From Chitinophaga sancti (lineage in GTDB: Bacteria; Bacteroidota; Bacteroidia; Chitinophagales; Chitinophagaceae): a stretch of DNA of 64,000 nt. The stretch spans positions 7,324,501 to 7,388,500 of the forward strand of contig NZ_CP139972.1 in assembly GCF_034424315.1 (NCBI RefSeq), given 5' to 3'. The notes beneath the pieces were generated by a model that made no database searches, was not told where the DNA came from, and saw nothing but the letters and a program-made list of their open reading frames with translations. The first letter of the stretch is position 1; each line of letters opens with the position of its first letter. The position numbers and the translations under genes are program-made. Shown here piece after piece: positions 1 through 11,521 of the stretch.

Positions 1-700
1 TGACGTCATGGAAATGTTTGAACTGGCTAACCTGACAGGTGGCGAGATTCATCGTTCTAATGTGATTATGACTGCCAACTGGCTTGTAGGCCGTGGTAAG
101 TTCGACGAGATCAATGAGCAGGACAATTTATACGTTCCACCTTCCGGCGCACTGGCAGGTAAGATCTATAAAACACTCATGTCACAGGTTACTGCCGGTA
201 AGAAATTTGGTGGTATCAACGAAGTAGATGGTGTGAAATTCGAACTGAAGAAAAGCGAAATTGCTAGCCTTGAAAAAATGGGCCTCATCCCAATGGTAAA
301 GGAATACGGCAAGGTAATGGCTTTCAGTGCAAAAACTTTGTTCAATGGTGATAACATTGGTCTGCAGACTTACTCTGTCGTACGCGTATTTGACTACGTG
401 ACCAAAGTATTGATGGACTTCCTGAATCGCCGTGCATTTGAAAACTTCAATGCAAATACCCGCAAAGACCTGATGAAACAGATCATCCGCTTCCTGGACA
501 GTATAACGGGGCCGGATAAACTGATTGAAGATTTCAACATCCGCCGCTTTGAGCAGGATCCTTCGCAAAAAGATCGTATTCACCTGGATATACACCTGAA
601 ACCATACTTCCCTGCCAAGAACTTCCTCATTAAAATGGATGGTCACAAAGGGGATGATGGGAATGATTGGAATACAGAATATGAGCAGGATAAAGCATAA
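1..700 (+). CDS. tssC: T6SS contractile sheath large subunit TssC (C-terminal part, cut by window start)
   Basis: TssC (VipB) assembles with TssB into the cytoplasmic contractile sheath around the Hcp tube. The frame is open from base 2 with no stop, and the first ATG at 8 is internal, so only about the last 232 residues of a protein normally near 450 are present. The visible part ends in the conserved sheath C-terminal region (RIHLDIHLKPYFPAKNF) followed by an acidic tail. The Bacteroidota TssC family (formerly DUF5458) is recognised by overall similarity and by the TssG, TssN, TssK and Hcp genes that follow. A strong terminator starts 47 bases after the stop, so the gene ends its transcription unit. 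TssB is expected just upstream, outside the window. Confidence 0.9.
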   Translation, partial: DVMEMFELANLTGGEIHRSNVIMTANWLVGRGKFDEINEQDNLYVPPSGALAGKIYKTLMSQVTAGKKFGGINEVDGVKFELKKSEIASLEKMGLIPMVKEYGKVMAFSAKTLFNGDNIGLQTYSVVRVFDYVTKVLMDFLNRRAFENFNANTRKDLMKQIIRFLDSITGPDKLIEDFNIRRFEQDPSQKDRIHLDIHLKPYFPAKNFLIKMDGHKGDDGNDWNTEYEQDKA

Positions 701-746
701 AATGATTCGTGGCGAATTAACTTATTGATGATAAACAAACTGTAGT

Positions 747-776
747 TCCCCCTCCTGGAGGGGGAGCCTGTTTTTT
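747..776 (+). terminator. Intrinsic terminator after tssC
   Basis: An eight-base stem, T747-C754 against G758-A765, is followed by a short spacer and a run of six T at 771-776. It separates tssC from the TraN-like gene, so the latter probably has its own promoter between about 777 and 827. Confidence 0.8.
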
Positions 777-827: not shown

Positions 828-1700
828 ATGAAGCAATTGCTAACAGGCGTACTCTGTGTTTGCTTATTGTCGTGGGGCCATGCTTCAGGGCAAGCGCAGC
901 CAGACAGTATTATCACGACGAAAGGCGCCGTCACCCTTATAACCTGTGGATCTTCCATCAGCACATTTCAAATTGGCGATGGAAAAAATTCGGATTACGA
1001 CTATCGCATCGTAGATGGGAATGTCGTATTTATACGGCCGGTAGTGGCAAACCCAAGACCGACCAACCTGGTGATCAGGGAGGGAGATAATATTTTTTAC
1101 ATGATCCTGGCCTACAGGGAAAAGGTTGGATTGTCAAAACTAAAGTACAACCTGTCTGGCGGTGCTTCAGCATCCAGGACCTCTACCGGGGCCCAGAATA
1201 CGACAGGTGGCACTTCCTCCACTGCTAATACTTCTGATCCGGCGGCAGATGATAACACCCCGGTTCCGGATGTTGATACCGTAACCGTAGGCAACATCGC
1301 TGCTGACTTTATAAAGCAGCGGAAAGTGCAGCGGCAGTATGAAACTACCTCAGAGAGTATTACGGTGACGTTTTCACAGGCCATGAGTCTGAATAACCTG
1401 ATGTATTTGTGTTTCAGGATTAAGAACCAAAGTGGTACACCTTACCAGGTGGGTAAAATAACGATCATGCATAAAGTATATACCGATACTGCCACACTGC
1501 ATCACCTGCCTGTTGCATACAAAAAAGGACCTTCTTTTTTTGGAGGAAGAGATGAGAAGAACGTAGTGTTTGTAACACCTGCACCCGTACTGAAGAAAGC
1601 TGATGAACTCATCTTCATCATGTACAATGCAGCAACAAAGAGCCAGATTGTTCTCTACGTGCCAATGACAGGGCTGCCCAAATATATGGTCACTAAATGA
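828..1700 (+). CDS. TraN/VirB9-like periplasmic protein (DUF4138-like) inside the T6SSiii locus
   Basis: A 290-residue protein with a clear signal peptide (about residues 1-22, ending GHASGQA). Residues 25-95 form a beta-rich N-terminal domain resembling the N-terminal half of conjugative-transposon TraN. Residues about 100-150 are a low-complexity Ser/Thr/Ala/Pro linker. Residues about 175-285 resemble the TraN C-terminal domain: the order of elements MYLCFRIKNQSGTPYQ, a basic strand, then KNVVFVTPAP and a final beta hairpin matches it. TraN/VirB9 proteins are outer-membrane-associated parts of type IV machines. No other tra gene is present, so I infer a periplasmic part of the T6SSiii envelope complex. 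The stop overlaps the lytic transglycosylase start in ATGA, implying coupled translation. It could instead be one of the phylum-specific Tss proteins under another name. Confidence 0.65.
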   Translation: MKQLLTGVLCVCLLSWGHASGQAQPDSIITTKGAVTLITCGSSISTFQIGDGKNSDYDYRIVDGNVVFIRPVVANPRPTNLVIREGDNIFYMILAYREKVGLSKLKYNLSGGASASRTSTGAQNTTGGTSSTANTSDPAADDNTPVPDVDTVTVGNIAADFIKQRKVQRQYETTSESITVTFSQAMSLNNLMYLCFRIKNQSGTPYQVGKITIMHKVYTDTATLHHLPVAYKKGPSFFGGRDEKNVVFVTPAPVLKKADELIFIMYNAATKSQIVLYVPMTGLPKYMVTK

Positions 1701-2728
1701 TCCGGCGCTATCTCCATATAATCCTTGTTTGTGCCTGTTGTATGATAACAGGAGGACTGTCTGCACAGCAGGTAGCCTTTTGCGGAGAATCTGTGCCTAT
1801 GGAGCGTGATTTTGTCAATTACAGGCTGATGGATGTGATAAAGGGTCATCTTCGTTACCGTAATTTTCTGCCAGCTTTAAAGGCCAGATCAGAGCAGTAT
1901 TTTCCGCTCATTGTACCCATCTTACAGCAGTACCATATACCAGAAGATTTTAAATACCTGCCTATCGTGGAAAGTGGTTTTACCAATGCCACATCTATCG
2001 TAGGTGCACAGGGCGTGTGGCAGCTGATGCCGGCTACTGCTACTACCTTAGGACTGGATGTAAGTGATTCGAATGATGAGCGGAATGAGCTGCTGAAATC
2101 TACACATGCAGCCTGTAAATACCTTGTAAAACTTTACAACCAGCTACATTCCTGGACACTGGCTGCTGCAGCGTATAACTGTGGCGCAGGCAATATCTCA
2201 CGCAATATCCGCAAGCAGGGTAGTAGTGATTATTACCAGCTGATACTGAACAGCGAAACGGCACAGTACATTTACAAGATCATTGCCATAAAGCAATTAT
2301 TTGAATATCCTGAATTGTACATTCCTGAATTCGGTTACAATGTGTTCAATAAAACAACAGTAAATGCATCAGTTTTTAATGCAGGTTCTGCATTAGAATC
2401 AGATAAACGATTCAGGAGTATCAAAATCAATATCGGCGGAAAATCAGAAAAGGTAGCGGTTACATCACTGGCAGCTAAGATGCAGAGCAGTAAAAGCTTT
2501 GAAGATGGGCAGCTGGTAAGTATACTGTTGTTGGATGATCTGCAGGCGAATGGTGTGTATATCAGGAAACAAACAAAATTATCCGGTAGAGGATGGCTGG
2601 TGAGTAACCGTATTTATGTAGATCTTGGATTTGGAAATATGGTCGTGCTTTGCGATGCCGGGGGCAAGAAAGGAGTGACGCCGGAAACATTAAAAACAGG
2701 AGGAGAGGTGCGCCTCCAGAAAATATAA
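1697..2728 (+). CDS. Lytic transglycosylase (GH23/SLT) of the T6SSiii locus
   Basis: A 343-residue secreted murein lytic transglycosylase that cleaves the MurNAc-GlcNAc bond with a non-hydrolytic mechanism. It has a signal peptide (about 1-23). The SLT domain spans about 72-190, with catalytic Glu92 in the IVESGF motif, the GAQGVWQLMPATA motif near 104-116 and AAYNCGAGNI near 158-167. The C-terminal 100 residues are a separate domain with a LysM-like look but no clear LysM match. The start ATG overlaps the stop of the TraN-like gene by four bases. Cell-wall enzymes are used by T6SS to pass the membrane complex through peptidoglycan. That role here is inferred from position; a general MltD-like housekeeping role is the alternative. 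Confidence 0.88.
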   Translation: MIRRYLHIILVCACCMITGGLSAQQVAFCGESVPMERDFVNYRLMDVIKGHLRYRNFLPALKARSEQYFPLIVPILQQYHIPEDFKYLPIVESGFTNATSIVGAQGVWQLMPATATTLGLDVSDSNDERNELLKSTHAACKYLVKLYNQLHSWTLAAAAYNCGAGNISRNIRKQGSSDYYQLILNSETAQYIYKIIAIKQLFEYPELYIPEFGYNVFNKTTVNASVFNAGSALESDKRFRSIKINIGGKSEKVAVTSLAAKMQSSKSFEDGQLVSILLLDDLQANGVYIRKQTKLSGRGWLVSNRIYVDLGFGNMVVLCDAGGKKGVTPETLKTGGEVRLQKI

Positions 2729-2801: not shown

Positions 2802-2847
2802 AATAACAAGAGGCTTTATCTGGATTATGATACAGCCTCTTGTTATT
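2802..2847. terminator. Bidirectional terminator between convergent lytic transglycosylase and tssF
   Basis: A perfect 14-base inverted repeat (2802-2815 against 2834-2847) with an 18-base loop lies between two convergent genes. The stem ends are A/T rich, so it can act on both strands, although T runs are short. Confidence 0.7.
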
Positions 2848-2901: not shown

Positions 2902-4734
2902 TTACATCAATACATCGTTCATAAATATTCTATACGGATAATTATTCGTTCCATTCTCTTTCAATTGCTGCAACATCTCATCCTTCATATACAACAAACT
3001 TCCTTCCGCATATAGGTTCGCCGGTTTCGATAACGTAATCTTGATATCCAGTGTTCTGCTATACCCCTCAGAAGCACCTGGTTTTACAGACACTCCTTTC
3101 ACAATGCTCACTTCTCTCAGTTCCTTACCCATCACAAATTTCACCATCGCCTTCATATCCTCCGGTGTTACTATTCTATTGCGTGTAAGCAAATGATACC
3201 TGTACAAATTGATCTTTTCATCAATACTCAGACGGTCCTTACCCCCCTGCGTATTCGACAGCAGGGCGATAGAATTAGGTTGTAACTGTACACTTCCATA
3301 CTCCTGCAATTTGCTGCCCATACGGATATTATTGGCAGTGCTCCCGTTGGTAGTGAAAAATTCTAAAAACAAATAATCAGCATTTTCCTTTGGCTTGATC
3401 ATCAGGTAAGGAATATTCCCCCTGTTGGCCGTAGGCTGTAACTGTTCTTCCAGCGAAGCAATCAGCTGGTGGAGTTCTCTCATTCTACTGGCTACATAGT
3501 CATTGCGCACCTCTTCGAAGAGCGAGCTTTCATCCCTGATTACTTCAATCAGGTAAGCAATGATCTCCTTTGCTTCGCGGCTATCGAACCTGCCAATTCC
3601 ACTGCTCCTGATTACCAGTTCCCCTTCCTGCATTTCTCCGCTAGTCGTAAAGTTACGCACATGGTAATCGGTGCCTGCTACATCGTATACACGTTTCACA
3701 TCAAAGTAAATATCGTTGGTGTGCAGCGGCATAATGTTCAGGTACTTGTTTAGTCGTTGTGATTGCTCGTTCAGTTTTTTATTGACCACCGGAAAACTGT
3801 TGATACTGCAAAAGATGTCTTCCAGTAAAGAGTGCCGGATAGTTTCCGGGAATTCAATCCTGATCCACACAATCTCCTGTTGCAATCTGCTGCTGGCCTG
3901 CCCAAATACATGATGCAGTGCAGGCGGAAAAGGCATGGCGGCTGGTAATTGATCCGTGCTGGTAATGGTCAGAAAATGCTGTTTAAAACGTTGTAATACC
4001 TGCTGTCCATAGCGTGTATTGGTATCGAAAGCCGGTTGCATAATGGCTTCCAGGTCTTCTTCAGCAGCACTCTTGCTATGAGTATAACCACTTTTTACCT
4101 GAAGCTGCGTTTCCCCTACATAAAATTTAGCCAGTGGCAGGTAATGATAAAACATTTCCTGCAGGTGTACATTTCGCAGATCAAAGAAAAATGAGAGCCC
4201 TTCTGCGGAGGTATGGGCGCCTTCCATACTTAGACCCAACCAAAGATGATTAGGCGGCGTATCGGCCTGTAAATTGCCTTGCAGGACCTGTTCCTTGAAC
4301 CAATGGTCCCTGGTCTCAAACAATTTACCACCAATCACGCTATATTTTACCTGTCCGCGGAACAGGCGCTGATGTGCAAGGGGCATGAAAAAAAGGTCCT
4401 GGCTATTAAAGCCGTTCCTCAGTGAATAGAAAAACTGGTGCTCAGGCGTCAGGGAGGCTGTACGTTCATTGCAGCTGGCATGCAGAATGCCATAGGCTGG
4501 CTGACTACTGGTAATGGGTTCCGGCATCATGATCTGTGCCAGCCGTTCTACCAGTCTTGCATGGGAAACCTCTGCCTCACCCTGGATCTTTTCCAGTTCA
4601 CTGGCACAGGCTTCCAACAGTAATTGTACAATGGGATCAAAGGAGGTTTCTACCTCTGCATCAGGGTATCCCCACAGCCTGGCGGCTGTTTTAAGCATCC
4701 GGTCTTTGATTCGTTCTTTTTGTTCTTTTGCCAA
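2902..4734 (-). CDS. tssF: T6SS baseplate subunit TssF
   Basis: A 610-residue baseplate wedge protein, close to the usual TssF length of about 600. The N-terminus is typical: RMLKTAARLWGYPDAEVE, then a conserved acidic helix and QIMMPEP, matching the MPxP region of the family. The chosen start is a TTG at 4734; the next in-frame ATG at 4698 would remove 12 residues that Bacteroidota homologs appear to have, so TTG is preferred. It is the last gene of a minus-strand unit PKD protein-tssE-tssF. TssE ends 61 bases upstream, with no terminator between. TssF forms the wedge with TssG and TssE, which here is transcribed divergently from TssG. Confidence 0.92.
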   Translation of the reverse strand: MAKEQKERIKDRMLKTAARLWGYPDAEVETSFDPIVQLLLEACASELEKIQGEAEVSHARLVERLAQIMMPEPITSSQPAYGILHASCNERTASLTPEHQFFYSLRNGFNSQDLFFMPLAHQRLFRGQVKYSVIGGKLFETRDHWFKEQVLQGNLQADTPPNHLWLGLSMEGAHTSAEGLSFFFDLRNVHLQEMFYHYLPLAKFYVGETQLQVKSGYTHSKSAAEEDLEAIMQPAFDTNTRYGQQVLQRFKQHFLTITSTDQLPAAMPFPPALHHVFGQASSRLQQEIVWIRIEFPETIRHSLLEDIFCSINSFPVVNKKLNEQSQRLNKYLNIMPLHTNDIYFDVKRVYDVAGTDYHVRNFTTSGEMQEGELVIRSSGIGRFDSREAKEIIAYLIEVIRDESSLFEEVRNDYVASRMRELHQLIASLEEQLQPTANRGNIPYLMIKPKENADYLFLEFFTTNGSTANNIRMGSKLQEYGSVQLQPNSIALLSNTQGGKDRLSIDEKINLYRYHLLTRNRIVTPEDMKAMVKFVMGKELREVSIVKGVSVKPGASEGYSRTLDIKITLSKPANLYAEGSLLYMKDEMLQQLKENGTNNYPYRIFMNDVLM

Positions 4735-4795: not shown

Positions 4796-5227
4796 TTAAT
4801 CATACGACAATGGGCTTACGTAAAAGAAACTACTATAGTGGAACTCAGTTTTATTCCTCGCCAACACACCCGTTACTGTCACTCTTATCTTCTTCTTTAC
4901 CTTCTTCGCACTGACCCCCATTAATTCCTCCTGACTGATCTGCGCCACTACCCTGGTCTGTGTCAGTCGTTTCTCATACCTGTTGATAGATGCCCTGATG
5001 GACAATTCTACCTGTTCCTTCACTTCATTGTTCGACGCCCTGATATCGAAATCGCTGTCCCACAACTGGCAGCCATACTGGGGATCATCTTTATTTTCCC
5101 CGAGTACGGTTGTGATTAACAACTGAATATGTTGTCCTACAGATTCTTCCAGGTTCACATCCGGCAAATCCTGCTTCTGCAAAATTCTGGAGAAGTCCAT
5201 CGGTAATTTATAATACTGCTGTTTCAT
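4796..5227 (-). CDS. tssE: T6SS baseplate protein TssE (gp25-like)
   Basis: A 143-residue gp25/GPW family protein that links baseplate wedges to the first sheath ring. Family marks are the N-terminal FSRILQ and the run GENKDDPQYGCQLWDSDFD, a variant of the conserved region around the EFG-type loop, followed by helices and a beta C-terminus. It is normal in length for the family. It starts 10 bases after the PKD protein stop and lies just upstream of tssF, so the three genes form one minus-strand unit. Confidence 0.9.
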   Translation of the reverse strand: MKQQYYKLPMDFSRILQKQDLPDVNLEESVGQHIQLLITTVLGENKDDPQYGCQLWDSDFDIRASNNEVKEQVELSIRASINRYEKRLTQTRVVAQISQEELMGVSAKKVKKKIRVTVTGVLARNKTEFHYSSFFYVSPLSYD

Positions 5228-5237
5228 TTTTTAATGA

Positions 5238-6302
5238 TTAAAAAATGCCTAAGAATTTCTTGTCATACCGCACACGTATTTCCTTCACACAACCGTTTTG
5301 ATCTTTGATCAGGTTTACTACTTCAATCTTAAACCTTCTCTTGCCGCGAATGCGTGAGCAGAAATGACTGAAGGTATCTGTATCCTTATCATTCAGCAAT
5401 ACTCTTGCATTGATGTTTTCACAAAGATATGCGGAGAAATCGCTGGCGTTTTTTTGTTTGTCCACCACCTGGCTCAGCATAAACTTAAATTCATCATCTG
5501 AAACGGATGGTACTTTAGGCTTCTCTGGCGCAGCAGGTACGGGCGCAGGCTCTGGTGTCTTATTCTCATCAGGAAATGGCATGGGAGTAAAGTCTGGTAC
5601 CTTGTGATTGCTTTGTGCAGGGAATACCATGATATGCTTGGTCACCATCTTACTGCTATCGCCATTGATGATCAGTGACAGAATACGTTCACCCGGGGAA
5701 GAGAATGTGTAAGTAACACTACGGCCACTATGCACTTCAGCACCTCTTTGCAGCAGCTGCCATTGCCATGTATTGGCATTTGCTGTACTATTGGTGAAAG
5801 TAACAGCACGACCAGCCAATATTTCTTCCGGACCATCGATTGTGGGGTAGAGGTCGGCGGCTGGCGCAGGTGTGTTATCTGCTAAAGCATTAATAATAAT
5901 CACCTCCTGGTTCCATGTACACTTGCCATGTGATAAGGTGACCATGTAGGTGCCAGCTTTGGTAAATGCATGGTAAACCTGTAGCCCTGAAGTGGTAGCT
6001 GTGGAATCACCAAAATCCCAGGTGAGTCCGCTGTCGCTGCCTGCGGTAGTGGCTGCCTTAAAAGTGATTACTTCTCCTGTACTGAAAGAAGTATGTTTTC
6101 CTGCATTGTTCCGGCTTGCCAGTTCGATGCTGATCTGACTGCAATCTTCACGGCCGGTAACCTGGAAAGCCAGTATGATCATACTAATGCTGAGTAATGC
6201 CAGGAATGTGTACAGAACCATTGGGTCGATATGGTTTGTTATCTTGCTGAATGGTCTATACGTAGTAACTTTTCGCTCATTTGCGGACTTTCTTGGGGCC
6301 AT
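5238..6302 (-). CDS. PKD-domain inner-membrane protein of T6SSiii, probably TssP
   Basis: A 354-residue protein from the ATG at 6302; the frame also allows a TTG start at 6323. From the ATG, a basic cytoplasmic N-terminus of about 25 residues precedes one membrane helix (about 27-46). Two PKD-like beta domains follow (about 51-139 with WDFGD and YHAFTKAGTYMVTLS, and about 151-233 with YTFSSPGERILSL). Then come a Pro-rich linker (about 233-268) and a C-terminal domain of about 85 residues. The topology suggests a periplasmic arm anchored in the inner membrane. T6SSiii loci lack TssJ, TssL and TssM and use TssN, O, P, Q and R instead. The position upstream of tssE fits TssP, but I am not certain which Tss letter belongs to it. 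Confidence 0.7.
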   Translation of the reverse strand: MAPRKSANERKVTTYRPFSKITNHIDPMVLYTFLALLSISMIILAFQVTGREDCSQISIELASRNNAGKHTSFSTGEVITFKAATTAGSDSGLTWDFGDSTATTSGLQVYHAFTKAGTYMVTLSHGKCTWNQEVIIINALADNTPAPAADLYPTIDGPEEILAGRAVTFTNSTANANTWQWQLLQRGAEVHSGRSVTYTFSSPGERILSLIINGDSSKMVTKHIMVFPAQSNHKVPDFTPMPFPDENKTPEPAPVPAAPEKPKVPSVSDDEFKFMLSQVVDKQKNASDFSAYLCENINARVLLNDKDTDTFSHFCSRIRGKRRFKIEVVNLIKDQNGCVKEIRVRYDKKFLGIF

Positions 6303-6466
6303 AGGTTTCTCGTATTTCTGCAATTTTAAATATTTTTTTAGAGAAATTAATAAACTACCTAAATTCGTAGTTGAAATTTTAACATTTGAATCCGTGAAAT
6401 CTGGTGATATTTGTTAGTATGTAACCCTGGAAAATAAGAGATCAGGAAAAACCTAAATTAACCCGT

Positions 6467-7423
6467 ATGGTAAATAATGCCCAAAAAGCCGCGGTACTGG
6501 AGGAAGTAATAGACCATATCAACAAATTGCAACATGATGTACGTGCCGAAGTAGTAGTAGGAGAGTTACTGGATAATCATGTGCGTGCCGAAGAAATTGC
6601 CGTACAAAATCAAAATGTATTTGTAAGGTCTTTCAATAAAGATATTTTAGATGCTCAACTGGATGATTCGCAACCTTACCATCCATTTATTTCGCTTACC
6701 CTTTCCCGTGATGGACTGTACGATCGTTTACCGGAGGGCATCTTCCACCAGTTTACACCGCAGCAGCAACAGCGCTCGGTAAGGGAAATGGTGCTCAACT
6801 ACAAGCGTCAGCAAAAAGAACAACAGGAAGCAAGAAAGTTTTTTCGCCCGCTTGAGAACGAATTTTTTCTACAAAGAGTTTTCCTGGAGCAGAAAGAAAA
6901 ACATTTACTCTTTGATGCATTCGGAAAAGATACAGATGAATTGTTCCTGGCATTCTGGGGTATCAGGTCTGATCTGCCAAAAACAGCACTGAAAAAGTTG
7001 GTCAAATTGTTGCCATACATTTACCGCATAGCAGGTAATCTGCCCCTGGTACAACTTTACCTGAAGGCAATACTGGACGAGCCGGTAAAGATTGTCCAGG
7101 AAGATATGTCTACTGCTGTGGAAACTGGTGCTGCTGTGCCCCTTGGTAATTCAAGGCTGGGCATGGATTCAATGACTGGTGACCTCTTCTATACAGATAT
7201 GCCTGTCTGGAAAATTACCATTGGCCCCCTGCAACAGCACAGGGTACACGACTTTCTTCCCTGGCAGCCATACGGCAAACTGTTAGAGACCTGTATTGGA
7301 TTCCTGGTACCAGCTGATGTAGAAGTAGCAACTATACTTGAACCTCACGCAGATGAACGCAAGGCCTTTATGGCAGACTCCCGGGAGAAGGAAGGATTGG
7401 GCGGCTATAATTTTTACCTGTAG
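6467..7423 (+). CDS. tssG: T6SS baseplate subunit TssG
   Basis: A 318-residue TssG of the Bacteroidota type. The central part (FFRPLENEFFLQRVFLEQKE, about residues 122-141) and the following region with LLPYIYRIAGN and LYLKAIL are characteristic. The C-terminus carries a WKITIGPL strand and a beta region seen in TssG proteins. TssG pairs with TssF to build the wedge core. It is the first gene of a plus-strand block and is divergent from the PKD/tssE/tssF unit. The gap of 143 to 164 bases between them must hold both promoters; I see only a weak candidate, GATATTTG at 6406-6413, one base off the phylum's minus-seven form. Confidence 0.88.
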   Translation: MVNNAQKAAVLEEVIDHINKLQHDVRAEVVVGELLDNHVRAEEIAVQNQNVFVRSFNKDILDAQLDDSQPYHPFISLTLSRDGLYDRLPEGIFHQFTPQQQQRSVREMVLNYKRQQKEQQEARKFFRPLENEFFLQRVFLEQKEKHLLFDAFGKDTDELFLAFWGIRSDLPKTALKKLVKLLPYIYRIAGNLPLVQLYLKAILDEPVKIVQEDMSTAVETGAAVPLGNSRLGMDSMTGDLFYTDMPVWKITIGPLQQHRVHDFLPWQPYGKLLETCIGFLVPADVEVATILEPHADERKAFMADSREKEGLGGYNFYL

Positions 7424-7540: not shown

Positions 7541-8395
7541 ATGATACTAAAAGCTAAGATCTACATTGTACTGGCGGCATTTATGGCTATCGGCTCCCTG
7601 ATAGTGGGTCTGCTAAGCCGTTATATTAAAAACTTTTCCCTATATAAGAAAAAGGCACTCTGGTACCTTGCTATTATGGTACTGGTATTTGCTGTCATCA
7701 GCTCCATTCCGTTCCTCTTTACACACCAGAATTCCATGAGCCAGTATATCTTCTACGAAGTATGGTTTCTGGGCCTCGGCATAGTACATTGTAACCTCAT
7801 GTATACCCGTTTCTGGGGCAGTGACGATTCATTTGGATCAGAGCTGGCATTCATTGTAGCCATCTGGCTGTTTGGTGGAATTGGCTTCATACTCATCCAG
7901 CATTTATTTGCAAAAGGAGAGTTTTCATTTTACCCCTTACTCACCTGTATGTTCGCATTTGCATTGCCTACATTTGTGTATAAGACCTTTGAAAAGATGA
8001 TGGCCATTCCAGCTAAGATATTCAAGTGGTGGCAATATCCCGCTTACCAGGAATTACCTGAAGTGAATGAAGATGATATGCGCGATCTGATCGTAATTGG
8101 TTTTGAACTGGAGAAGAAAGTAACTGATCATGACCGCACCTACTTCCGGGCACGTACACCGATTAAGATGGATCTCGGCGACCTCTTCTATCATTTTATC
8201 AATGATTACAACGACCGTTATCCCAATACGCCGATTGACGTAGTGGATGCAAACGGACAACCATATGGCTGGGTATTTCACCTGAAATCAAAATGGGCAT
8301 TTACAGCCAAAACACTCGATCCGGATAAGCCTGTATTCATGAATGGAATGCAGGAAAACAGCGTTATTATTTGTAACCGAATTATTATCAATTAA
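7541..8395 (+). CDS. tssN: T6SSiii membrane protein TssN
   Basis: A 284-residue inner-membrane protein with five predicted helices (about 5-25, 40-60, 70-88, 101-120, 129-147) and a soluble C-terminal domain (about 150-284) containing YRARTP-like and YGWVFHLKSKW segments. This matches TssN, one of the phylum-specific components that replace TssL and TssM of classical systems. It is followed at 26 bases by tssK, the baseplate-to-membrane adaptor, which fits a role in docking the baseplate through its cytoplasmic domain. Confidence 0.85.
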   Translation: MILKAKIYIVLAAFMAIGSLIVGLLSRYIKNFSLYKKKALWYLAIMVLVFAVISSIPFLFTHQNSMSQYIFYEVWFLGLGIVHCNLMYTRFWGSDDSFGSELAFIVAIWLFGGIGFILIQHLFAKGEFSFYPLLTCMFAFALPTFVYKTFEKMMAIPAKIFKWWQYPAYQELPEVNEDDMRDLIVIGFELEKKVTDHDRTYFRARTPIKMDLGDLFYHFINDYNDRYPNTPIDVVDANGQPYGWVFHLKSKWAFTAKTLDPDKPVFMNGMQENSVIICNRIIIN

Positions 8396-8421: not shown

Positions 8422-9597
8422 ATGGCAGAACCGCTCAAATATTTTCCCGTCAACTGGGTTGATGGAATGAAGATAAAAAAACAGCATTTCGTTGAAACAG
8501 AAAACGCAATGCTGGATCAGATAAGGGATGCTATTTCCAGCGGCTTGCATGCGCAGAACTACGGATTGCTGCCTGCAAAAGCAGAAAGTAAAGAATCATT
8601 ACGTTGCTGGTTTGTAACCGACAATCAGCAGCAATGGAGGATCAAACTCACCGAATGCCGTGCCGTTACCCCCGGTGGTGCAAGAATTGAGATCCCTGAA
8701 CATACTGTACACTCGCTGAAATATGCGACCACGTTTCCTGAAGCTACATTTAACTGGGATCCACTGCACTCAGAAAATGCATATTACATCCTCATACAGG
8801 TAAACCCTTTCGACCGCCAGCCAAGCGGAGAACCTTTGCTGCGTGAAGATCCGCCAAGATTGCCGTATGCTACACCGGAATACCATCTGTATGTAACACC
8901 TGCATCACAGTTACCACAAGGGCAACTCGGTAGTTATCAAATGATACTGGGGCGTATCAATATCGTAGATGGTCGTCCGCAGATGGATGATGATTACATA
9001 CCACCCTGTACAATGGTGTATGCGCATCCTTCCCTGGCAGACCTGCACCAGGAGCTGGATCAGTTCCTCGGTCAGCTGGAAATGTACGGCGTGCACATTG
9101 TTCAGAAAGTATATTCACGTAATCAGAATAATGACCTGGCACAGGTAGTATTGTACATCACAGAAAGATTAGTACAATACCTGGGTACGCGCATTTCTCA
9201 GTTCCGCTGGTTAGGTATTTATCAAACACCCGCAGCGATGCTGGAAGTAATAGCAGGCCTGGCCCGTACTATGAAGAATGCGATCGATCAGCGTGCAAGT
9301 GCAGGTAAAGAAGAACTGCTGAATTACTTTTCAGAATGGTGTGAACTGAAACAGGGTGAACTGGAAACCCTGATGATAAATTGTGCAAACATCCGCTATA
9401 AACACACAGATGTAAGAGAGTGTCTGCAACCTATGATCCCTTTTGTACGCGCGATCAACAAGTTGTTCGAAAGCCTGAGCAGGCTGGATTACATTGGTCG
9501 TAAGATGGATAGTGGCATCTTCGTAAAAGAAGAAAGTGCAGAGGATGCAGAATACATCCGTAAGCATAAAACCAAAAAATGGTTTTTCACAGATTGA
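8422..9597 (+). CDS. tssK: T6SS baseplate adaptor TssK
   Basis: A 391-residue TssK homolog. The N-terminus, LKYFPVNWVDGMKIKKQHFVETENAM, matches the family's conserved W-x-x-G-M-x-x-x-x-x-H-F motif that binds the wedge. A beta-rich N-terminal half is followed by a helical middle and C-terminal domain. In classical systems TssK joins the TssEFG wedge to TssL and TssM; here the partner is probably TssN. It sits between tssN and tssO with gaps of 26 and 29 bases, so it is almost certainly in the same operon. Confidence 0.9.
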   Translation: MAEPLKYFPVNWVDGMKIKKQHFVETENAMLDQIRDAISSGLHAQNYGLLPAKAESKESLRCWFVTDNQQQWRIKLTECRAVTPGGARIEIPEHTVHSLKYATTFPEATFNWDPLHSENAYYILIQVNPFDRQPSGEPLLREDPPRLPYATPEYHLYVTPASQLPQGQLGSYQMILGRINIVDGRPQMDDDYIPPCTMVYAHPSLADLHQELDQFLGQLEMYGVHIVQKVYSRNQNNDLAQVVLYITERLVQYLGTRISQFRWLGIYQTPAAMLEVIAGLARTMKNAIDQRASAGKEELLNYFSEWCELKQGELETLMINCANIRYKHTDVRECLQPMIPFVRAINKLFESLSRLDYIGRKMDSGIFVKEESAEDAEYIRKHKTKKWFFTD

Positions 9598-9626: not shown

Positions 9627-10139
9627 ATGCGTGTACTGAACAAACAGGAAAGATTATCCGCTTTTTTATGGTTCCTGTTATTTTTTATAGTTACAGTAGG
9701 CCTGTTTGTACTGGCCGTATTTTTCAACTTCCAGGTGCCAAACCGCGAGAATGCAGAGCTACGTAAAGAGCTCGCTACATTCCGCCAGGAGCAGGCGTTT
9801 CAGGGTGAGTTCCTGGCAAAGCTGGAGAGAGTGAGAAACAATCTCGATTCTATTAATCTGCCTAATCAGAATGCGAATTATATGGATCAGGTAATTGCAC
9901 AGGATCTGGTGAGTATGCGTAACTCTATACCTAAGGATGCAGTAACTCATTATGGCTTGTATGCAAACATCATTCAGAACTGTCTTTTATTACAACAAAG
10001 TAAACAGCAATTGCGTGGATTATCTAATGCACAACAAAGTATTGCAGAGCTCAAAGAAAAGATCAGCGATCTGAACAAAGAGCTTGAAAATGCCCGCAGC
10101 GAGCTGGATTACAACAGGCAGTTAATGAGAAGCAGGTAA
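9627..10139 (+). CDS. tssO: T6SSiii transmembrane protein TssO
   Basis: A 170-residue protein with a short basic cytoplasmic N-terminus (NKQERLSAF), one membrane helix (about 12-34), then mostly alpha-helical periplasmic sequence. The C-terminal 50 residues (LRGLSNAQQSIAELKEKISD onwards) have a clear coiled-coil heptad pattern. This is the form of TssO, a phylum-specific part of the T6SSiii trans-envelope complex. It closes the tssG-N-K-O block. The 172-base gap that follows contains the hcp promoter. Confidence 0.82.
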   Translation: MRVLNKQERLSAFLWFLLFFIVTVGLFVLAVFFNFQVPNRENAELRKELATFRQEQAFQGEFLAKLERVRNNLDSINLPNQNANYMDQVIAQDLVSMRNSIPKDAVTHYGLYANIIQNCLLLQQSKQQLRGLSNAQQSIAELKEKISDLNKELENARSELDYNRQLMRSR

Positions 10140-10311: not shown

Positions 10312-10701
10312 ATGTCATTCAAATCCGTGTTTGAAGTAGCAGGAAAACAGATGGTTGTTAAACACTGTAGCTACGACCTCACCCAGGAAGTAGATGCAAC
10401 TGGTCGCCCTTCAGCTATTACCCGCGGCGGCCGCATCAGATTAACAGTAGAATCTAATGGTGATACCGATTTGTTTGAATGGATGGTAAACAACTTCGAA
10501 AGGAAGGATGGTACTATCACGTTCTACAAAAGAGATTCTGATGCTAAGCTGAAATCACTCAACTTCAAGGAAGGATACCTGGTGAAGTTCGAAGAAACCT
10601 TCGATGCTGATAACCAGAATCCGATGATGGTGTCATTCACTATCTCTGCCCGTGAAATTGCCATGGGTAACGCTTCCCATATCAATGAATGGGTAAAGTA
10701 G
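10312..10701 (+). CDS. tssD: T6SS tube protein TssD (Hcp)
   Basis: A 129-residue Hcp-like tube subunit of the Bacteroidota family. The family pattern is visible: MSFKSVFEVAGKQ at the start, the YDLTQEVDATGRPSAITRGG segment, and the FTISAREIAMG strand near the C-terminus. Hexamers stack into the inner tube, which is expelled through the sheath and can carry effectors in its lumen. It has its own near-consensus promoter upstream and a terminator 36 bases after the stop, so it looks monocistronic. No C-terminal extension is present, so it is a structural Hcp and not an evolved effector. Confidence 0.93.
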   Translation: MSFKSVFEVAGKQMVVKHCSYDLTQEVDATGRPSAITRGGRIRLTVESNGDTDLFEWMVNNFERKDGTITFYKRDSDAKLKSLNFKEGYLVKFEETFDADNQNPMMVSFTISAREIAMGNASHINEWVK

Positions 10702-10774: not shown

Positions 10775-11521
10775 TTATGGCTTGTTGTATTCCCTTCTAC
10801 TCTCTACCGTGTATATAAAACTATCCGCTTTATAATACCCCAGGTTATACTCCACCGGTAAATCATTCTTATCATACACAAATCTCCTCCTGAACAGTAC
10901 CGGACTCCCCGCATCAATCTCTAATTTTCCTGCCACAAATTTATCCGCCGCTTTCGCACTCACTTCCTCCTTCGATAAAACAGCTACCACCCCATAATCC
11001 TTATCCAATATTTCATACAACTGCCGCTTAAAATCTTCCTCACCTGTCAACCCAATCCTGGGATGAAACCAGGAAATGAAATAAACAAAAGGGCCATCCG
11101 GTGTTCCTCTCAATCTTTCTAATTTCAATATCTTTTGTGTGGCTGTGATACCAAAAAATTCCGCGGTATCATTATCCGGCAATACCCATGTAACATGTAA
11201 CTCAAAATTTCGCACTTTTAAGCCCCGTGCCTGCATTTCCTGGGTGAAGCTGATCCAGTTCTTCGCCTTTGAACTAATCCGGTCTAATTCGGCCACTTTT
11301 GTGCCCACACCTTTCTTGCGCAACAGCAATCCCTCATATACAAGTTTATTCAGCGCCTGCCGCAATGTAGATCTTGAAATAGCCAGCTGCTTCGCCAGCT
11401 CTACCTCATTCGGTAAAAACTGCCCACCCGCATACTTCGGATCCCTGATCATATTCCGCAGCAAATGCTCCACCTGAATATGTAATGGAACCGGATTCTG
11501 ATGATCAATACTCATTTCCAT
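10775..11521 (-). CDS. GntR-family regulator with UTRA ligand domain
   Basis: A 248-residue HutC/FarR-type regulator. Residues about 10-75 are a winged helix (PLHIQVEHLLRNMI, then LAISRSTLRQALNKLVYEGLL, then a GVGTKV wing). Residues about 95-240 are a UTRA domain (LERLRG, then PVLFRRRFVYDKNDLPVEYNLGYYKAD) that usually binds a sugar or sugar phosphate. A 14-base palindrome lies 24 bases upstream of the start and is a likely operator, implying autoregulation. Divergently across that site lies the remnant of a glycoside hydrolase gene, so the regulator may have lost its original local target. Confidence 0.9.
   Translation of the reverse strand: MEMSIDHQNPVPLHIQVEHLLRNMIRDPKYAGGQFLPNEVELAKQLAISRSTLRQALNKLVYEGLLLRKKGVGTKVAELDRISSKAKNWISFTQEMQARGLKVRNFELHVTWVLPDNDTAEFFGITATQKILKLERLRGTPDGPFVYFISWFHPRIGLTGEEDFKRQLYEILDKDYGVVAVLSKEEVSAKAADKFVAGKLEIDAGSPVLFRRRFVYDKNDLPVEYNLGYYKADSFIYTVESRREYNKP

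What the first reader, a model, noticed from the sequence alone, without database searches (positions are those of the whole stretch)
828..2728. TraN/VirB9-like protein and lytic transglycosylase coupled inside a T6SSiii locus
Between tssC and tssF lie two genes with a four-base overlap: a secreted protein whose two domains look like the conjugative-transposon protein TraN, and a secreted GH23 lytic transglycosylase with Glu92 in place. T6SSiii lacks TssJ, TssL and TssM. A VirB9-type periplasmic part plus its own wall-cutting enzyme would be a hybrid way to cross the envelope, borrowing from type IV machines. The similarity is my reading of the translated sequence, and the joint role is inference.
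Basis: partly seen in the sequence, partly recalled or inferred. Interest (0 to 1): 0.72.

Follow-up and report, generated by a model that had tools for sequence, protein, structure and literature searches.

The report
T6SS borrowing parts from conjugation machine
Soil bacteria of one family carry, inside the gene cluster for a toxin-injecting machine, two genes that resemble parts of DNA-transfer machines, one of them fused to a wall-cutting enzyme, which may be how this variant of the weapon crosses its own cell wall.

Summary
At 828-1700 and 1697-2728 (ATGA overlap), between tssC and tssF of a T6SSiii locus, lie a TraN/VirB9-type protein and a GH23 lytic transglycosylase (LT), both apparently secreted. 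TraN homology is marginal for the single protein but firm for its orthologue family: profile-profile 98.6%, E 5e-16, 259 columns over both domains against conjugative-element TraN; one orthologue passes Pfam's DUF4138 cut-off. One same-genus conjugative element carries TraM, TraN, an SLT+TraM-type LT and a TraO-like gene in a row. In the genus, TraN lies 5.0-9.5 kb from tssN in 52 of 52 loci and in 0 of 22 genomes without tssN over cut-off; the LT accompanies it in 46 of 51 genomes. No TssR (possible outer-membrane lipoprotein of the Bacteroides complex) was found in these loci, and no TraN in 7 TssR-type loci. Best reading: a T6SSiii variant using TraN plus a TraM-tailed LT where others use TssR. 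Function is inferred; no structure could be modelled.

The parts
828..1700 (+). TraN/VirB9-like protein, 290 aa: signal peptide by eye, N-terminal domain (about res 26-110), low-complexity linker (about 111-147), C-terminal domain (about 148-288)
   Evidence: family-level homology; in 51 of 79 genus genomes
1697..2728 (+). GH23 lytic transglycosylase with TraM-like C-terminal domain, 343 aa, signal peptide by eye
   Evidence: SLT PF01464 6.4e-23, TIGR03779 TraM 5.8e-5, PF12508 0.0091; family-level
1697..1700 (+). ATGA overlap of the TraN stop and the LT start
   Evidence: TraN-to-LT spacing in the fetched genus loci
1937..2239 (+). SLT catalytic domain (LT residues 81-181)
1970..1972 (+). codon of the presumed catalytic Glu92
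   Evidence: invariant in 22 of 22 aligned LTs
2396..2620 (+). TraM-like stretch of the LT, residues 234-308
   Evidence: TIGR03779 E 5.8e-5; profile-profile 86%, E 5.2e-6, 113 columns
745..767 (+). terminator-like hairpin between tssC and the pair, suggesting a separate two-gene transcript
   Evidence: 10-pair stem plus T run, (consensus match only)
2802..2847 (.). 19-nt inverted repeat (95% complementary), possible shared terminator between the LT and convergent tssF
2..700 (+). 3' part of tssC (gene begins upstream of the window)
   Evidence: PF17541 1.1e-233
2902..4734 (-). tssF
   Evidence: PF05947 3.5e-4 (below cut-off); position
4796..5227 (-). tssE (gp25)
   Evidence: PF04965 1.3e-14
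5238..6323 (-). tssP-like protein with PKD domains
   Evidence: PF18911 3.3e-14
6467..7423 (+). tssG
   Evidence: PF06996 3.2e-7
7541..8395 (+). tssN, T6SSiii membrane-complex hub
   Evidence: PF17555 2.9e-64
8422..9597 (+). tssK
   Evidence: TIGR03353 1.9e-10 (below its cut-off)
9627..10139 (+). tssO
   Evidence: PF17561 1.7e-27
10312..10701 (+). tssD/hcp
   Evidence: PF17642 6e-49

Best explanation
In the Chitinophaga-type T6SSiii the periplasmic/outer-membrane end of the membrane complex is built from parts related to conjugation machines. TraN (VirB9-like) forms or lines a periplasmic ring under the outer membrane in the place that TssR holds in the Bacteroides-type complex, and the LT is held to it through its TraM-like tail, so that the wall is opened only where the machine is built. 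Shown here: homology of both proteins to the TraN and TraM/SLT families, fixed linkage to TssN-bearing loci, purifying selection, and no overlap with TssR in the loci examined. Inferred: location, ring formation, TraN-LT binding, wall opening for the T6SS, replacement of TssR, and descent from a conjugative element. Recalled, not shown: that Bacteroidota TraM is the VirB10 counterpart.
For: Homology: 20 T6SS TraN proteins (A1, from the 51 genus genomes) against 33 conjugative TraN: hhalign 98.6%, E 5e-16, both domains; 14 control pairs of other T6SS, TraM, LT-tail and TraN profiles gave at most 9.2% (pairwise E-values). At E 0.1, 13 of 20 members match DUF4138 (best 8.2e-8, over the cut-off), 3 of 20 CagX, 10 of 20 TIGR03780. 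Among the models tried, the T6SS TraN profile scores best for 20 of 32 conjugative TraN loci, best 4.1e-12. LT tail: TraM matched in 15 of 22 LTs at E 0.1, best 3.7e-5, hhalign 86%, alignment. Element with TraM-TraN-LT-TraO in a row. Linkage: TraN in 51 of 57 TssN-positive and 0 of 22 TssN-negative genus genomes, Fisher p 1.9e-14, 52 of 52 loci within 10 kb of tssN; full-length LT in 9 of 14 TssN-positive and 0 of 46 TssN-negative family genomes, p 1.4e-7. LT beside TraN in 46 of 51 genomes, same strand each time. TssR: no hit in the own genome while the same model rang in 13 of the 29 genomes searched; no TssR hit in the 56 genus stretches, 37 of them 14 kb or longer; TraN in 0 of 7 TssR-type family loci. 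In T4SS, VirB1 is an LT that opens the wall and contacts VirB8, VirB9 and VirB10 (PMC12624023, passages).
Against: No experiment and no usable structure (AF2 mean pLDDT 37.5 and 32.9). The window TraN itself reaches no family cut-off; PDB profile hits are only suggestive (CagX 0.038, TraO 0.33). The LT tail is short and its TraM match partial and below cut-off; T6SS LT tails and the element's LT tail do not match each other directly (2.0%), and the element's tail against TraM gives 45.9%. Three TraM proteins match no VirB10 family in Pfam at E 0.1. Only one conjugative element with such an LT was found, and the LT trees leave its place unresolved, so direction of transfer is open. 5 of 51 genus genomes have TraN without an LT hit beside it and 2 have an LT without the tail. 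G089 has a T6SS in which neither TraN, LT nor TssR was found. In G001, G007 and G043 the pair was not found linked to the T6SS, and G001 also has a TssR-type T6SS. The TssR profile used in hhalign holds 8 rows, several cut at stretch ends. TssQ was not searched.
Confidence: 0.6

Rival explanations
1. The LT is an antibacterial T6SS effector and the TraN-like protein its immunity or loading protein.
For: Wall-cutting enzymes are known among T6SS effectors (general knowledge); the genes lie in a T6SS locus.
Against: Both look Sec-exported by reading the N-termini (no predictor was run); fixed position and strong constraint, unlike variable effector cassettes; TraN persists without an LT hit beside it in 5 of 51 genomes; TraM-like tail and a conjugative homologue of the pair.
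Confidence: 0.08
2. The pair is a structural add-on to an otherwise complete T6SSiii membrane complex (like MltE or TagX helpers), not a replacement for TssR; TssR function is supplied by an unrecognised protein.
For: Some TssN loci have neither TssR nor TraN by these models (G089, G003:C2), and 9 of the 29 genomes have neither full-length LT nor TssR. LTs of another lineage sit in TssR-type loci too, so an LT as such is not tied to TraN.
Against: No TraN in 7 of 7 TssR-type family loci and no TssR in the TraN-type genus stretches; among genus TssN loci that score weaker than 1e-80, 52 of 53 have TraN beside them, the exception being G089.
Confidence: 0.21
3. TraN-like is simply a diverged TssR and no borrowing from conjugation machines took place.
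For: Same kind of locus, non-overlapping presence.
Against: hhalign TssR against T6SS TraN 0.8% and against conjugative TraN 3.0%, while T6SS TraN against conjugative TraN is 98.6% (the TssR profile has 8 rows, several truncated). Folds could not be compared.
Confidence: 0.05
4. A passenger remnant of a conjugative element caught in the locus.
For: Conjugative elements are frequent in the phylum (DUF4138 in 34 of 296 genomes).
Against: Found beside tssC in the genus genomes down to 23% TraN identity and under purifying selection.
Confidence: 0.03

Closest known systems
Bacteroidota T6SSiii membrane complex TssNQOPR (Bacteroides fragilis, PMC10781749)
   Same: Same kind of baseplate/tail genes and TssN, TssO, TssP-like proteins
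   Different: TssR not found; TraN plus TraM-tailed LT instead. The paper reports tssR absent or unidentifiable in 31% and suggests other genes may have been co-opted (sections read); a word search of its text finds no TraN, TraM, VirB9, VirB10 or type IV secretion
TraN (TIGR03780/DUF4138) of Bacteroidota conjugative elements
   Same: Two-domain homology over 259 columns; TraM-TraN-LT-TraO order in one element
   Different: Sits in a T6SS locus; in other genera of the family the protein is longer, with coiled-coil-like or TPR stretches
VirB1/VirB9/VirB10 of type IV secretion
   Same: LT plus VirB9-like plus TraM-like (VirB10 by recall) parts; VirB1 contacts VirB9 and VirB10 (passages)
   Different: Here the LT and the TraM-like domain are one protein, and no conjugation genes were seen elsewhere in the T6SS locus
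TagX of Acinetobacter (PMC5061870, abstract and outline) and MltE of EAEC (mentioned in PMC10781749)
   Same: Wall enzymes serving T6SS assembly
   Different: TagX is an L,D-endopeptidase and MltE a housekeeping transglycosylase; what I saw of these papers does not tie them to VirB9/VirB10-like parts

Membership tests
TraN / DUF4138 (PF13595, TIGR03780) | Profile score over curated cut-off | tested here: inconclusive
   Window protein below (13.0 v 31.1 bits; 16.2 v 164.1); orthologue L064 over Pfam's (32.3 bits)
TraN / DUF4138 (PF13595, TIGR03780) | Homology across both domains | tested here: met
   hhalign 98.6%, columns 21-307 v 7-275
TraN / DUF4138 (PF13595, TIGR03780) | Lies in a conjugative tra operon | tested here: not met
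   T6SSiii locus; so TraN-like, not a conjugation TraN
VirB9/CagX superfamily | Sequence link | tested here: inconclusive
   3 of 20 members match CagX at E 0.1, best 1.6e-6, below cut-off; 3 of 20 match TIGR02781 VirB9, best 5.4e-4; PDB hits 0.038 and 0.33
VirB9/CagX superfamily | Two beta domains, ring with VirB7/VirB10 | not testable with these tools
   AF2 model too poor
GH23 lytic transglycosylase (MltD-like) | SLT domain over cut-off with catalytic Glu | tested here: met
   81 bits v 21.3; E92 invariant 22 of 22; closest solved chain 8rhe E 2.8e-32
TraM (PF12508) | Profile score over cut-off | tested here: not met
   17.0 v 25.1 bits for the window LT; relation seen at family level only
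TraM (PF12508) | Full-length TraM: N-terminal part and the complete C-terminal domain | tested here: not met
   The LT has an SLT domain in place of TraM's N-terminal part and lacks about 50 residues near the end; TraM-like tail, not a TraM
VirB10 | Link of TraM to VirB10 | tested here: inconclusive
   No VirB10 family match for 3 TraM proteins in Pfam at E 0.1; the equivalence is recalled
T6SSiii | Baseplate, tail and TssN genes | tested here: met
T6SSiii with TssNQOPR complex | TssR | tested here: not met
   No PF17643 match in the genome; the model rang in 13 of the 29 genomes searched
T6SSiii with TssNQOPR complex | TssQ | not tested
   No TssQ profile was used

The most novel reading that the evidence does not exclude
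A contractile injection machine has swapped the outer part of its envelope-crossing complex for a minimal type IV secretion outer-membrane core: VirB9-like TraN plus a lytic transglycosylase fused to a shortened VirB10-type (TraM) C-domain. The pair would act as a portable adaptor that lets unrelated machines cross wall and outer membrane, and T6SSiii would come in two envelope versions, TssR-type and TraN-type.
Probability: 0.45. Interest if true: 0.85.

Novelty: new variant of a known kind. Interest (0 to 1): 0.72.

Why it matters
How T6SSiii crosses the wall and outer membrane is open, and the 2024 study could not say where its membrane complex came from or what stands in for TssR where it is not found (sections read). 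A conjugation-type pair in systems of one family in which TssR was not found gives a concrete, testable answer for that clade and would show parts moving between two kinds of secretion machine. In ten searches of the open-access library I saw no report of it in the titles and abstracts listed; several listings were capped (for example 20 of 41, 12 of 55), most subscription papers are not held, and bioRxiv was not covered as such.

Tried and rejected
Viral-contig search with A1: 76 pattern matches, no relative. Genome-contig search: 2 loci. The LT of the conjugative element against plasmids: 40 records, none covering 80% of it; against 294 family genomes at E 1e-45: only itself and the T6SS LTs of G006 and G000. 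Hope that the LT tree would place the T6SS LTs with the element's LT: not resolved (repeated with four more LTs). The trees do set the LTs of nine TssR-type loci apart, next to MltD-like LTs (careful tree with five of them 100/99 for the joint branch and 98/93 for the five; quick tree with nine, SH-aLRT 100 and 95; long branches were warned of). Idea that TssR is a hidden TraN: disfavoured by profiles, fold not tested. Rows dropped: the LT trees leave out 10 of 70 LT domains (near-copies and the partial L033); A1 holds 20 TraN proteins of the 51 genomes; the LT-tail profile leaves out the element's LT and the two tail-less LTs. The 29 genomes are 24 from the phylum sample plus 5 Chitinophagaceae added because, so shares of 29 are not phylum frequencies.

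Full report
What is there. The window lies at 7324501-7388500 of an 8.42 Mb single-contig genome. The nearest named records found for the locus are Chitinophaga silvisoli and [Flexibacter] sp. ATCC 35208 (90% and 87% TraN identity). The order is hcp(-), clpV, tssB, tssC, TraN-like, LT, tssF(-), tssE(-), tssP-like(-), tssG, tssN, tssK, tssO, tssD (tssB and tssF are below Pfam's cut-offs and named partly by position). A terminator-like hairpin at 745-767 and an inverted repeat at 2802-2847 frame the pair, which suggests, but does not show, a two-gene transcript.

TraN-like protein. The window sequence alone gives only TIGR03780 at 0.0042 and DUF4138 at 0.067 and nothing in the PDB by phmmer. With orthologues the relation is firm. 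Of 20 members of A1, 13 match DUF4138 and 10 match TIGR03780 at E 0.1, best 8.2e-8 and 7.5e-7. L064's orthologue in the same slot passes the DUF4138 cut-off with 32.3 against 31.1 bits and matches CagX at 1.6e-6, below its cut-off. A profile of T6SS TraN built only from T6SS loci is the best-scoring of the models tried for 20 of 32 conjugative TraN loci; 7 more are best matched by the single TraN of L039, and 5 by neither at E 1e-3. Profile against profile: 98.6%, E 5e-16, 259 columns; the 14 control pairs reach at most 9.2% (E-values are pairwise). The PDB profile search lists only two chains at E 1, both VirB9 family (CagX 0.038, TraO 0.33), neither significant.

Lytic transglycosylase. SLT at 6.4e-23 and Glu92 conserved in 22 of 22. 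The C-terminal 138 residues resemble TraM: TIGR03779 5.8e-5; 15 of 22 members match PF12508 at E 0.1, best 3.7e-5; profile-profile 86%, E 5.2e-6, 113 columns. In the alignment the tails follow TraM up to its DxxGxxG stretch, miss about 50 residues (alanine-rich in TraM, helical by eye), and resume in a last strand-like piece. That TraM is the VirB10 counterpart, and that the missing part corresponds to the outer-membrane helices of VirB10, is recalled knowledge; Pfam gave no VirB10 match for three TraM proteins at E 0.1.

A conjugative element with the same pair. L039 (G006, same genus) carries TraG P-loop (1.4e-49), TraM (3.2e-27), TraN (8.8e-15), an LT with SLT (2.2e-20) and a TraM-type tail (4.6e-5; 24.5 against a cut-off of 25.1 bits), and a TraO-like gene (4.2e-4, below cut-off), TraN and LT again sharing four bases. 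In one search this LT is the next best match to the window LT after the nine full-length ones (48% over 8-203). It is a single case: none of 32 other TraN loci showed an LT in flanks of about 1.5 kb, and 294 family genomes gave no second one at E 1e-45. Descent from a conjugative element is therefore my preferred reading, from the breadth of TraN there, but not shown.

Distribution. Genus: TraN in 51 of 79 genomes, all 51 with TssN over cut-off; TssN over cut-off in 57 of 79. The 52 TraN loci all lie 5.0-9.5 kb from a tssN. Of 67 TssN loci 15 have no TraN near: 14 whose TssN scores better than 1e-80, plus G089. Across the 51 genomes the LT follows TraN on the same strand in 46, at -29 to +132 bases; 14 of the 51 stretches with an LT (56 fetched, five genomes counted twice) show exactly -4. 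Five genomes (G122, G071, G110, G116, G121) have no LT hit there; G110 and G121 have a DUF2490 protein in the gap. Two LTs (G133, G106) lack the tail. Family: full-length LT in 9 of 60 genomes, all among the 14 TssN-positive. In the 7 non-genus genomes the LT has a larger neighbour on the same strand (390 to 948 aa; G043's is cut off), before the LT in 6 and after it in G011. Its likeness to TraN varies: G001, G003, G022 and G043 as a group 95.7% over the C-domain, G004 90.2% and G011 73.8% over the N-domain, G007 only 35.6% though 7.5e-5 by phmmer; TPR matches occur in G004 and G007. In G003, G004, G011 and G022 the pair is inside the T6SS locus; in G001, G007 and G043 no link was found. Phylum: TssN over cut-off in 24 of 392 genomes; of those 24, full-length LT in 3 and TssR in 12.

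TssR-type loci. In 7 family loci with TssR no TraN was found. Five carry an LT (G001, G009, G026 twice, G055); in G063 and G087 none was found in the stretches fetched. Four genomes of another family (f24, unnamed) have an LT right after clpV (L116, L167, L168, L172). All nine such LTs group together, apart from the TraN-type LTs and beside MltD-like ones (long branches warned of). So an LT seems to have joined T6SSiii at least twice, and TraN with a TraM-tailed LT is one solution. Family genomes with two T6SS mostly were not examined at the second locus.

Mechanism. TssR is the possible outer-membrane lipoprotein of the Bacteroides complex, and its loss abolishes Hcp release there (PMC10781749, passages). 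In type IV machines VirB1 opens the wall and binds VirB8/9/10, and VirB9 with the VirB10 C-domain makes part of the outer-membrane core (PMC12624023, passages). The simplest reading is that TraN makes the outer periplasmic ring, the LT docks on it by its TraM-like tail, and the wall is cut locally while TssN, TssO and the TssP-like protein hold the inner part. Only the sequence relations and linkages are shown; each physical step is inference. Papers seen: PMC10781749 passages, outline, two sections and a word search; PMC11854122 passages; PMC12624023 passages; PMC5061870 and PMC10564176 abstract and outline only; others as search listings.

Noticed in passing
L167, L168, L172, L116 and family loci L171, L198, L208, L209, L211: TssR-type T6SSiii loci carry their own LT of another lineage, right after clpV in six and otherwise next to TssR or tssK; the 2024 membrane-complex paper does not use the word lytic.
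   Followed up: partly
L097/L177 (G400:C8), L177:4943-9173: A TraN (DUF4138 1.7e-14), TraO (8.7e-16) and TraQ-cadherin gene run lies about 7 kb past a T6SSiii of another family (f25, unnamed): perhaps a second case of conjugation parts near a T6SS, or only a neighbouring element.
   Followed up: partly
L066:7613-8494 and L068:8156-8992: A DUF2490 protein stands between TraN and tssF where the LT is missing.
   Followed up: no
L215/L216 (G089): A Chitinophaga-genus T6SSiii with no TraN, LT or TssR hit, tssC and tssF being almost adjacent: a natural loss worth testing for activity.
   Followed up: no
L031:5885-10127 (G004): A protein kinase fused to an FGE-sulfatase domain, a second FGE protein and an FHA protein sit beside the LT, suggesting phospho-control of that T6SS.
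   Followed up: no
L214:4040-6466 (G055): A TPR-rich 808-aa protein after tssP matches the expanded TraN profile (1e-17) with no LT beside it; repeats may inflate the score.
   Followed up: partly
window 10775-11521 (-): A GntR-like regulator, by reading of its sequence only, lies just past the T6SS genes.
   Followed up: no
L039:11888-15721: The conjugative genes are followed by a 1277-aa PKD/Ig protein with a type IX sorting tail.
   Followed up: no
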